NCBI GenBank assembly: GCA_905478185.1
Contig: CAJQHO010000032.1
Coordinates: 1 to 54,007 of the forward strand
Direction: 5' to 3'
DNA length: 54,007 nt
From: an uncultured Flavobacteriales bacterium
Lineage (GTDB): Bacteria; Bacteroidota; Bacteroidia; Flavobacteriales; BACL11
Part shown: positions 15,457-49,474 of the stretch, one piece after another
How positions within the stretch are numbered: the first letter of the stretch is position 1
Layout: each line of letters begins with the position of its first letter
The notes under the pieces: model-generated
Databases searched by the model: none
Told to the model about the DNA's origin: nothing
Seen by the model: the letters and a program-made list of their open reading frames with translations, nothing else
Made by a program: the position numbers and the translations under genes

Positions 15457-15480
15457 AAAAGGAAGCAATTGCTTCCTTTT
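15457..15480 (-). terminator. Terminator hairpin downstream of the E2 gene
   Basis: 24-nt perfect palindrome aaaaggaagcaattgcttcctttt, followed on the minus strand by a T-run. Confidence 0.75.
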
Positions 15481-45845: not shown

Positions 45846-46502
45846 TTAATTTGTTTTAATTAAAAGGTGTTTTGCTACATCATTACTGATGTGTTGTTTG
45901 GTATTTCCTATTTTGATGCTGATTGATTGATCAAAAGATATCTTTTCTAAAAGCTTAATTTCTGTACCTATGCTGATATTTAACTTTGTTAAGTAATCTA
46001 AAAATGGCTTTTCATCTAATGTTACTCCCATAACCTTTCCATTTGTTCCTTCTGATAATTTATTTAAAGGTATAGTATTTGTTGTTGGGATTTTTCCATC
46101 TTTTGTAGGGATAGGCTCTCCATGAGGGTCAAATTTTGGGCAATCTAAAAAGGCATCTAATCTGTCTACAAGTTCTTCTGATTTTATGTGCTCTAGTTGT
46201 TCGGCTACATAATGAACTTCTCCCCAGTCAAAGTTTAAGTTATTCACTAAAAAAGTTTCCCATAATCTATGTTTTCTTATTACTGATGTTGCAAAAGAGT
46301 TTCCTTTTTTTGTTAATGATACACCTTTGTATTTCTTGTATTTTACAAGTTTTTTGTCTTGCAATTTCTTTAGCATATCTGATACTGATGCTGCAGATGT
46401 TCCAATTTCTCCTGCAATAGCATTGGTAGAAACTTTCCCATCAGAATTTAAACTAATGGATAAAATAGCTTTTAAATAATTTTCTTCTGCTAAAGTAATC
46501 AT
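45846..46502 (-). CDS. DtxR/MntR-family metal-dependent transcriptional regulator
   Basis: 218 aa; LAEENYLKAILSIS, AGEIGTSAASVSDMLKKLQDKKLVKYKKYKGVSLTKKG, HRLWETFLVN, DCPKFDPHGEPIP. Confidence 0.93.
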   Translation of the reverse strand: MITLAEENYLKAILSISLNSDGKVSTNAIAGEIGTSAASVSDMLKKLQDKKLVKYKKYKGVSLTKKGNSFATSVIRKHRLWETFLVNNLNFDWGEVHYVAEQLEHIKSEELVDRLDAFLDCPKFDPHGEPIPTKDGKIPTTNTIPLNKLSEGTNGKVMGVTLDEKPFLDYLTKLNISIGTEIKLLEKISFDQSISIKIGNTKQHISNDVAKHLLIKTN

Positions 46503-46506
46503 TTGG

Positions 46507-46514
46507 CAAAAGTA
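46507..46514 (-). promoter_or_regulatory. -7 box TACTTTTG of the MntR-family gene, 4 nt from the start codon
   Basis: Reverse strand TACTTTTG-CCAA-ATG. Confidence 0.5.
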
Positions 46515-46539: not shown

Positions 46540-46555
46540 TTTAGACATGTCTAAA
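46540..46555. promoter_or_regulatory. Candidate MntR/DtxR-type operator: 16-bp perfect palindrome TTTAGACATGTCTAAA
   Basis: Perfect inverted repeat in the divergent intergenic region between the metal regulator (start 46502) and the TonB receptor (start 46602). Confidence 0.75.
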
Positions 46556-46601
46556 AATTTAGATATTTGCCCAGCTTAACTAAAATCAAAAAAACCAAAA
46601 A

Positions 46602-48899
46602 ATGAATAGAATAATTAACCTAGTAATAATTGTATTTTTCATGATTTCTTTAACAGAAAATTCGCAAACAGTAAAAGGGAAAAATAACATCAAAAAATGA
46701 AGTTATACCTTTTGCAAACATCATTATTGAGGGAACAAAATTGGGTGTTTCGGCTGATGAAAATGGAAATTATGTTATTAAAAATGCACCATTAGGTCAT
46801 CATCATATTATTGCATCAGCAGTTGGAATTATAACTAAGAAGTCTCATAATGATGTTAATAAAGGAATAAATACTATTAATATTGAGTTAGTATCATCTG
46901 TATATAATTTGGATCAAGTGGTAGTTACAGGAACTAAAACATTTAAGAGAAGAACGCAATCCCCTGTAATTGTAAATGTGATGGATAGCAGACAATTAGA
47001 GAGTGTTCAAGCATGTAATTTGGCAGTAGGTCTTAATTTTCAGCCAGGATTAAGGGTAGAGACTGATTGTCAAACTTGTAATTATACCCAATTGAGAATG
47101 AATGGATTGGCTGGTGGTTATTCTCAAATCCTTATAAACGGAAGGCCAATTTTTAGTCCTTTAACAGGGCTATATGGGATGGAGCAAATCCCTACTAATA
47201 TGATTGATAGGATTGAAATTGTAAGAGGAGGAGGTAGTTCGCTTTACGGCTCATCAGCAATTGGAAGGGTAGTAAATGTAATAACTAAATTACCTACTAC
47301 TAATAATTTTAGTTTTGGATATGATAATAGTAGAATTAATAGCTCGGCTGAAGATAAGGTTTTTCATGGAAATGCAACTGTTGTAACTGATAATAAAAAT
47401 TCAGGAGCTACATTTTTTGTAAATAATCGTGATAGAATGTGGTACGATCATAATGGAGATAATTACTCAGAATTACCTGTTTTAAAAGACAATACTTTCG
47501 GGGCTAATTTCTTTTTCTTACCATCTAAAAATCAAAAAATAGAAGTAAATATGGGTAGTTTGCATGAGTATCGTTTTGGTGGAGAAATGATTACAGGTGC
47601 GCCACATTTTGCAATGCAATCAGAAGAAAGAGTGCATTATGTTTTGCTAGGGAATTTAGATTATCAGCTTAATTTTAATGATGACAACTCATCTCTTATT
47701 ACTTATTTGGCGGCACAACAAACTAAGCGTGAGCATTATACTGGTATCAGACCAGAGGTTGGTGCTGATGAAGAACATTTGGCTAATCCTCCTTATGGAA
47801 TTTCATTAAATACAACTAAGCAAGGTGGTTTTCAGATGAATCATAAGATAAATAAGTTGTTTGGTCCAAATGTATTTACAATCGGTTCTGAGTATGTTTC
47901 TGATGATGTAATGGATGAAATCTCAGCTTATAATTATTTAATTGACCAAAAAGTAATAACTCTTGGTACTTTTGTTCAATCTGATTGGGACTTGACTGAG
48001 AATTTTAATTTACTAAGTGGCGCTCGTTTTGATAAGCACTCACTGTTGGATAATATGGTGGTTAGTCCTAGGTTGTCATTGCTTTATAAGTTAAGGAAAG
48101 AAACTCAATTTAGAATGTCATACAGTACAGGGTTCAGGGCACCACAAGCTTTTGATACTGATTTGCATATGGCATTTGCTGGGGGTGGAATTTCTCGTAT
48201 TGTTTTGGCTGATGATTTGAAAGAAGAGCGTTCAAAAAGTTTAAGTGCATCTGTTAATTATGATAAAGCAACTGAGCATTATGTTTATGGTTTTACTTTT
48301 GAGGGTTTTTACACGCATTTAAATGATGCATTTTATCAAGATCCATCTGGAGAAGATGAATTTGGAGAGGTTTTTACAAAAAGAAATGGAGCTGGAGCTA
48401 CTGTAAAAGGTCTTACTATGGAGTTTAGAGCAAATTTAGAGCAAAAACTGCAGATAGAATCTGGTTTAACTTTGCAAAAATCATTGTATGATGAGGCGGT
48501 AAGTTATTCTGATGAGCTTGAGAGTAGAAAAGAATTTTTAAGAACTCCAAATAAGTACGGTTATGCTACTTTAACTTACTCTCCTTCTAGTAAATTAAAC
48601 TTTTCTGAAATTTAGTTCATACAGGCATTATGGATATATTGCATTTAGCTGGCGCTTCTGAGCAAACTGAGGATGAATTCATAAAATCACCTACATTTAA
48701 TGTAATTGGACTAAAAGCAACTTACATACAGCAATTGAGTAGAGTAGGAGCTAAATTAGAATACAGTGTTGGGGTTAAGAATTTAACTAATGATTATCAG
48801 CAAAATCTTGATACTTTAAAAGACAGAGATAGTAACTTTGTTTACGGTCCTAATTTACCTATAACAGTCTACTTTGGATTAGTGCTAAAATCTCTTTAA
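46602..48899 (+). pseudogene. TonB-dependent outer-membrane receptor; two 1-nt homopolymer frameshifts
   Basis: MNRIINLVIIVFFMISLTENSQTVKGK/ITSKNEVIPFANIIIEGTKLGVSADENGNYVIK...VVVTGTKTFKRR...plug and barrel...KLNFSE/NLVHTGIMDILHLAG...YFGLVLKSL. Breaks near 46680-46684 (+1) and 48608-48610 (-1). Confidence 0.88.
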
Positions 48900-49174: not shown

Positions 49175-49474
49175 ATGCACGAAAGGCTCAAAAATTGGAT
49201 GGGAATAGAAGGCTTAAAATCCTCAGCTTTGGCGGATAGTATTGGCGTGAATCGTGCAACAATTTCTCACATACTTTCTGGCCGTAATAAACCAAGTATT
49301 GACTTTTTTCAAAAGCTATTAAGTACATACCCAGATTTAAATTCAAATTGGCTAATAACAGGAATTGGCTATATGAGCACTAAAAATGAAACTCAAGATG
49401 TAAAAGTTTCCAAGAAAATAGGTAAAGTAGTTGTGTTTTATGATGATAATTCCTTTGAAGAAGTAGGTGAGTAG
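49175..49474 (+). CDS. XRE/Cro-type helix-turn-helix regulator
   Basis: 99 aa; SALADSIGVNRATISHILSGRNKPSIDFFQKLLSTYPDLNSNWLITG. Confidence 0.88.
   Translation: MHERLKNWMGIEGLKSSALADSIGVNRATISHILSGRNKPSIDFFQKLLSTYPDLNSNWLITGIGYMSTKNETQDVKVSKKIGKVVVFYDDNSFEEVGE

What the first reader, a model, noticed from the sequence alone, without database searches (positions are those of the whole stretch)
46540..46555. Perfect 16-bp palindrome between a divergent MntR-like regulator and a TonB receptor: predicted metal regulon operator
Seen: TTTAGACATGTCTAAA is its own reverse complement. It lies 37 nt upstream of the MntR/DtxR-family gene (which is followed by a ZIP transporter gene in the same direction) and 46 nt upstream of the TonB receptor ATG. 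A near -7 box for the receptor (GATATTTG, 46562-46569) starts 6 nt after it, so a bound regulator would overlap the promoter. Known: DtxR/MntR proteins bind A/T-flanked palindromes of about this length. Inference: one operator controls both directions, predicting that the TonB receptor imports a manganese, iron or zinc chelate.
Basis: partly seen in the sequence, partly recalled or inferred. Interest (0 to 1): 0.6.

Follow-up and report, generated by a model that had tools for sequence, protein, structure and literature searches.

The report
Manganese-regulator switch controlling metal import genes
A short mirror-image DNA sequence between two oppositely pointing genes is almost certainly the docking site of a manganese-sensing repressor, and the same site recurs across many related bacteria in front of unrelated metal importers and one special outer-membrane receptor, which makes that receptor a good candidate for manganese uptake.

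Summary
The palindrome is real (46540-46555, exact) and placed as described. A perfect 16-bp palindrome alone is unremarkable in this AT-rich window (3 seen, 1.65 expected); its conservation is what counts. In 32 of 33 family genomes with mntR, a TTTAGRYNNRYCTAAA site with at most one mismatch lies 34-50 nt before mntR (0.08 expected). Elsewhere the site precedes NRAMP mntH, ZIP genes detached from mntR, mntR-ABC operons, and a TonB receptor. Across five families, 28 of 29 receptors of this type carry it in their promoters, including genomes where the receptor is not next to mntR. It sits 6-9 bp before the receptor's -7 box and abuts the mntR promoter, so one bound dimer could shut both. The regulator is the genome's only DtxR-family protein and resembles Mn-dependent DR2539, 5zr6 and ScaR. 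The receptor has a plug CxxC motif seen in none of the genome's 14 other receptors; an MntR-repressed CQNC receptor was reported in Stenotrophomonas in 2026. Best reading: an autoregulated MntR box, metal probably Mn(II), possibly also Fe(II). In this assembly the receptor gene carries two frameshifts. Binding and substrate remain untested.

The parts
46540..46555 (.). Operator (MntR box) TTTAGACATGTCTAAA, perfect 16-bp palindrome shared by both divergent promoters
   Evidence: Exact match; at most one mismatch to TTTAGRYNNRYCTAAA upstream of mntR in 32 of 33 family genomes, 0.08 expected
45846..46502 (-). mntR: DtxR-family metalloregulator with winged helix, metal-binding/dimerisation and FeoA domains (218 aa)
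   Evidence: PF01325, PF02742, PF04023 over cut-off; best solved relatives are Mn-dependent repressors; only PF02742 protein in the genome
44977..45843 (-). ZIP-family metal importer gene, 2 nt after mntR in the same direction
   Evidence: PF02535 E 2.8e-23; mntR-zip order conserved in relatives; in G023, G048, G050 the site stands directly before a zip detached from mntR
46602..48899 (+). TonB-dependent receptor gene, divergent; frame broken twice in this assembly (extra base in 46677-46684, missing base in 48604-48615)
   Evidence: PF07715, PF00593, PF13715; intact 765-aa orthologue in G001; frameshifts by comparison
46562..46569 (+). Receptor -7 box GATATTTG (one mismatch to TAnnTTTG), 6 bp after the operator
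   Evidence: A -7-like box begins 6-9 bp after the site in all 16 promoters compared
46507..46514 (-). mntR -7 box TACTTTTG, 25 bp from the operator and ending 4 nt before the mntR ATG
   Evidence: Perfect TAnnTTTG 22-28 bp away in 12 of 16 promoters compared
47068..47079 (+). Codons of the plug-domain CxxC motif (CQTC) of the receptor
   Evidence: Both Cys invariant in the two receptor alignments; present in only 1 of the 15 plug-domain receptors of the genome

Best explanation
The palindrome is the operator (MntR box) of the adjacent DtxR-family regulator. When cytoplasmic Mn(II) (possibly also Fe(II)) is sufficient, the metal-loaded dimer binds it. There it occupies the spacer of the receptor promoter, just upstream of its -7 box, and abuts the -33 region of the mntR-zip promoter. 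Both directions are repressed: mntR represses itself and its ZIP importer, and the outer-membrane receptor is switched off together with the inner-membrane importer. When metal is short the dimer releases and both uptake steps are expressed. Shown here: the site, its conservation, its promoter position, and its recurrence before unrelated metal importers and before receptors of this type. Inferred: binding, repression, the metal, and that the receptor imports a manganese (or iron) complex (about 0.5 for manganese).
For: 32/33 family mntR genes have the site at 34-50 nt (0.08 expected), plus 11/16 in the order and 7/10 further loci. Same motif before NRAMP mntH followed by mntR, before zip detached from mntR, before mntR-ZnuA/MntC-type operons. 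28/29 CxxC receptors over five families have it in the promoter (0.14 expected); none of 14 other receptors of the own genome does. Receptor unlinked from mntR keeps it in G003 and in several genus g14 genomes. Fixed spacing to -7 boxes on both sides. Regulator is the only DtxR-family protein in the genome, with best solved relatives all Mn-dependent and the DR2539-type ligand set. S. maltophilia precedent: MntR box between the promoter elements of a CQNC receptor, de-repressed without MntR (PMC13217887).
Against: No binding or expression data. Single convincing site in the own genome. G016's unlinked receptor lacks a clear site. Some distant mntR genes lack it. Four Bacteroidales CQNC receptors and one of three Persicobacter receptors lack it. 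Asn8 replaces the usual Asp/Met ligand. The receptor frame is broken in this assembly.
Confidence: 0.9

Rival explanations
1. Same operator and repressor, but the regulator senses mainly Fe(II) (IdeR/DtxR-like) and the receptor imports an iron chelate or haem.
For: Ligand set matches DR2539, which responds to Mn(II) and Fe(II) (PMC3327659); half-sites resemble TTAGG of iron boxes (own knowledge); receptor family models hit are mostly siderophore and haem receptors, all far below cut-off; the S. maltophilia locus needs combined Mn and Fe limitation; the genome has a separate Fur, which does not exclude this.
Against: Best solved and structural matches are Mn-dependent repressors; Glu101 stands where B. 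subtilis MntR has Glu99 and DtxR has Cys102; motif precedes NRAMP, ZIP and ZnuA/MntC-type importers, and no iron-only transporter such as FeoB was seen among the site-bearing loci.
Confidence: 0.2
2. The operator regulates only mntR-zip; the divergent receptor is a bystander that happens to be next door.
For: Several family genomes keep the site at mntR while lacking the receptor; G016's unlinked receptor has no clear site.
Against: The site goes with the receptor at loci not adjacent to mntR (G003; genus g14; L136; Persicobacter); fixed 6-9 bp spacing to the receptor -7 box.
Confidence: 0.06
3. Chance palindrome, or the site of another regulator such as Fur or the small HTH_3 protein at 49175-49474.
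For: Perfect 16-bp palindromes are expected 1.65 times in this window; a Fur-like gene precedes mntH in the Flavobacteriaceae examples.
Against: Conservation far beyond chance; it tracks mntR and metal importers with or without a Fur or HTH_3 neighbour; the sole own-genome Fur lies on another contig.
Confidence: 0.03

Closest known systems
MntR module of Stenotrophomonas maltophilia (mntR, mntH, mntP, TBDR-pTFP; PMC13217887)
   Same: Mn-type repressor controls a TonB receptor with a plug Cys-x-x-Cys motif (CQNC there, CQTC here; exactly CQNC in L136 and L154); box lies between receptor promoter elements; box also at the inner-membrane importer
   Different: 25-bp box there, 16-bp TTTAGRYNNRYCTAAA here; ZIP in place of mntH in this family; mntR-zip and receptor share one site; no thioredoxin-fold partner found beside the receptor; receptor sequences not compared directly
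DR2539 (MntR) of Deinococcus radiodurans (PMC3327659; PDB 8pvt, 8pw0)
   Same: DtxR family, Lys at the Glu11 position, His98 and Asp126 equivalents, binds an inverted repeat at mntH; 42-45% identity over about 140 residues
   Different: No divergent TonB receptor described; operator not compared base by base; Asn8 here
PgMntR of Porphyromonas gingivalis (PMC4805248)
   Same: Bacteroidota DtxR-family Mn regulator with C-terminal FeoA, binds the promoter of its own operon with a Mn transporter (FB2)
   Different: Two FeoA domains and Cys108 there, one FeoA and Glu101 here; no operator motif defined there; transporter is FeoB-type; no TonB receptor mentioned in the text searched
MnoT TonB-dependent Mn receptor of Burkholderia thailandensis (cited in PMC13217887)
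   Same: Precedent for TonB-dependent manganese uptake
   Different: Works with a type VI-secreted Mn-binding protein; sequence not compared here

Membership tests
DtxR/MntR metalloregulators | N-terminal winged helix plus metal-binding/dimerisation domain | tested here: met
   PF01325 and PF02742 over cut-off; model pLDDT 89 matches 5zr6, TM 0.80-0.83
DtxR/MntR metalloregulators | Conserved metal ligands | tested here: met
   H78, E82, H97, E101, E104, H105, D125, H127 invariant in 23 orthologues; exception: Asn8 in place of Asp/Met
DtxR/MntR metalloregulators | NCBI equivalog cut-off for an MntR subfamily | tested here: not met
   Best equivalog NF047407 scores 168.9 of 350 required; so it is a family member, not a member of that subfamily
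DtxR/MntR metalloregulators | Metal-dependent DNA binding and Mn selectivity | not testable with these tools
   Needs gel shift with Mn, Fe, Zn
MntR box (operator) | Inverted repeat in promoters of mntR and Mn importers, conserved across orthologues | tested here: met
MntR box (operator) | Occupied by MntR | not testable with these tools
   No binding data
CQNC-type MntR-regulated TonB receptor (S. maltophilia type) | Cys-x-x-Cys in the plug | tested here: met
   CQTC in the window; CQNC, CGVC, CNVC and others in relatives
CQNC-type MntR-regulated TonB receptor (S. maltophilia type) | Adjacent periplasmic thioredoxin-fold partner | tested here: inconclusive
   The window's next gene is a small HTH_3 protein; genes downstream of receptors in L029 and L033 are GNAT and lycopene cyclase; whole-genome search for the partner not done
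CQNC-type MntR-regulated TonB receptor (S. maltophilia type) | Falls in the same receptor clade | not tested
ZIP transporter | PF02535 over cut-off | tested here: met
   83.1 bits against 35.1; the ZupT equivalog cut-off is not met, 148.7 of 252

The most novel reading that the evidence does not exclude
TonB receptors with a CxxC plug under this operator are a dedicated outer-membrane manganese (or Mn-chelate) import class in Flavobacteriales and some Cytophagales, paired with whichever inner-membrane importer the lineage uses (ZIP, NRAMP or ABC), with the plug thiols acting in metal binding or redox gating.
Probability: 0.4. Interest if true: 0.7.

Novelty: new member of a known kind. Interest (0 to 1): 0.5.

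Why it matters
It gives a testable operator consensus (TTTAGRYNNRYCTAAA) for MntR across Flavobacteriales, reaching Cytophagales, for which my searches of the open literature found no description. It ties one class of CxxC-plug TonB receptors to manganese (or Mn/Fe) status. It also shows that the inner-membrane importer is exchangeable under one operator, which suggests that this ZIP protein does the job of MntH in this small genome, where no NRAMP was found.

Tried and rejected
Enrichment in the own genome: none (20 sites against 35 for the control); not a usable test because the genome holds a single convincing site. Second own-genome relaxed match (C3:7020, before an S46 peptidase): shared only with the nearest sibling, judged chance. 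A 2-mismatch site on C48 was not informative. NRAMP-domain matches in seven family genomes are weak (E 1e-6 to 1e-14), and the six read show no site beside that gene. Receptor structure prediction: mean pLDDT 50.6, too poor to use, so no fold search was run on it. CxxC as a sufficient marker of MntR control: rejected, because four Bacteroidales CQNC receptors lack the site. Literature searches for MntR in Flavobacteriales or Bacteroidetes gave PgMntR but no operator or TonB-receptor regulon there.

Full report
OBSERVATION. The palindrome TTTAGACATGTCTAAA is at 46540-46555, 37 nt from the start of the DtxR-family gene and 46 nt from the receptor ATG. On its own it proves little: the 33% GC window holds three perfect palindromes of 16 bp or more, with 1.65 expected in first-order simulations, and the genome has no excess of near matches.

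CONSERVATION AT mntR. Upstream regions of mntR orthologues were collected and scanned for TTTAGRYNNRYCTAAA. In the family, 21 of 33 have a full match and 11 more have one mismatch (0.01 and 0.07 expected), at a near-constant 34-50 nt from the start. Outside the family, 11 of 16 genomes of the order and 7 of 10 further loci do too. In the 50 such sites the outer letters TTTAG/CTAAA are invariant apart from one A-to-T at the last position, while the centre varies between RC..GY and RY..RY. That set was selected on the motif, so these frequencies describe it rather than prove it.

INDEPENDENT LOCI. (a) ZIP without mntR: in G048, G050 and G023 the site stands directly before zip, with mntR elsewhere in the genome. 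G023 is the one family genome with no site at mntR. (b) NRAMP: a strict scan (TTTAGRCNNGYCTAAA) of 248 genomes of the order gave 44 sites, against about 27 for the reversed-pattern control. By my reading of the flanking genes, 25 of them lie within about 100 nt upstream of mntR, zip, mntH or a TonB receptor; most of the rest lie inside coding sequence. Ten lie about 57 nt before an NRAMP gene (PF01566, E 9e-136 in the example scanned), with mntR about 2 kb from the site, beyond mntH. These ten are one genus, so they are few independent events. (c) ABC: in Lishizhenia and two other genomes, mntR with the site is followed by a ZnuA/MntC-type binding protein, PF01297; in a Saprospiraceae contig mntR is followed by the same protein type, with a one-mismatch site about 170 nt upstream. 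So three unrelated importer families share the operator.

THE RECEPTOR. 18 of 52 family genomes have the receptor, mostly beside mntR. In G003, where it lies on another contig, its promoter keeps TTTAGTTATGTCTAAA; in G016, also on another contig, it has no clear site. An order-wide profile search (A3) gave 30 best loci in families f1, f3, f8, f9 and f15. 29 receptors have CxxC in the plug (the other is a split gene), and 28 of the 29 have the site with at most one mismatch in the promoter, against 0.14 expected; of the 14 other receptors of the own genome, none does. In several genomes of genus g14 the receptor is not next to mntR and carries a second, separate site. The receptors linked to the site fall into two subfamilies only about 25-30% identical over their length, so the association spans distant receptors. 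In Persicobacter (Cytophagales), a CQNC and a CQSC receptor have perfect sites 45-48 nt upstream; a third Persicobacter receptor and four Bacteroidales CQNC receptors do not.

PROMOTER ANATOMY. On the receptor side a TAnnTTTG-like -7 box (0-1 mismatch) begins 6-9 bp after the site in all 16 promoters compared. On the mntR side a perfect TAnnTTTG begins 22-28 bp away in 12 of 16; in the window it ends 4 nt before the mntR ATG. The Bacteroidota promoter consensus is from own knowledge. A dimer on the site would sit in the receptor's promoter spacer and against the -33 region of mntR. That this means repression is inferred.

THE REGULATOR. It has PF01325, PF02742 and FeoA domains and is the only PF02742 protein in the genome. 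Best solved relatives are the Mn-dependent repressors 5zr4/5zr6, SloR, MtsR, DR2539 and ScaR. The AlphaFold model (pLDDT 89) matches 5zr6. Invariant H78, E82, H97, E101, E104, H105, D125 and H127, and K11, fit the DR2539 pattern; DR2539 responds to Mn(II) and Fe(II) and has Lys at the Glu11 position (PMC3327659). Glu101 stands where DtxR has Cys102 and B. subtilis MntR has Glu99 (ligands as listed in PMC4805248; residue matching is mine). Asn8 is unusual. Mn(II) is therefore favoured, Fe(II) not excluded.

KNOWN PRECEDENT. In S. maltophilia an MntR box lies between the promoter elements of a TonB receptor with a plug CQNC motif; [quoted passage not shown] The Flavobacteriales system works like it; whether the receptors form one clade was not tested, the operator differs, and no thioredoxin-fold partner was seen beside the few receptors checked. 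In P. gingivalis, PgMntR binds the promoter of its own operon with a Mn transporter (PMC4805248). I therefore call this a new member of a known kind.

LIMITS. No experiment exists. The receptor of this very genome has an extra base in the GGGAAAAA tract at 46677-46684 (also in a G002 contig that reads the same there) and a missing base near 48607. These may be assembly errors or decay. Counts are of genomes, not independent events; the simulations do not correct for relatedness, though the spread over several families and the loci where partners are exchanged speak against simple inheritance of one stretch.

Noticed in passing
46677-46684 and 48604-48615: Receptor reading frame broken twice against intact orthologues: an extra base in GGGAAAAA (also present in a G002 contig) and a missing base near the barrel end. 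Assembly error or decay of the gene.
   Followed up: partly
46500-46514: The mntR -7 box TACTTTTG ends 4 nt before the ATG, in the window and at similar distances in relatives, so the mntR transcript may be leaderless.
   Followed up: no
G000:C3:7020-7035 (L099): TTTAGGCAAATCTAAA about 16 nt before the likely ATG of an S46 peptidase, shared with G001 only; probably chance.
   Followed up: partly
L265, L266, L270: Bacteroidales CQNC TonB receptors lie just after a small protein with a THVHxxNG-type histidine motif and have no MntR box; perhaps a different metal system.
   Followed up: no
L079, L108, L074, L097: In relatives without the receptor the shared site faces other genes: a di-haem oxidoreductase-like lipoprotein (PF06537) or a PF13557 protein; possibly additional members of the regulon.
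   Followed up: partly
L139-L150: In genus g14 genomes a Fur-family-like gene (weak PF01475 match in the one scanned) ends 3 nt before the operator of mntH.
   Followed up: no
L179 (G016): The unlinked receptor of G016 is preceded by a strong hairpin with a T run in place of the MntR box; possibly a terminator or other RNA control.
   Followed up: no
15457-15480: 24-bp perfect palindrome AAAAGGAAGCAATTGCTTCCTTTT, perhaps a terminator.
   Followed up: no
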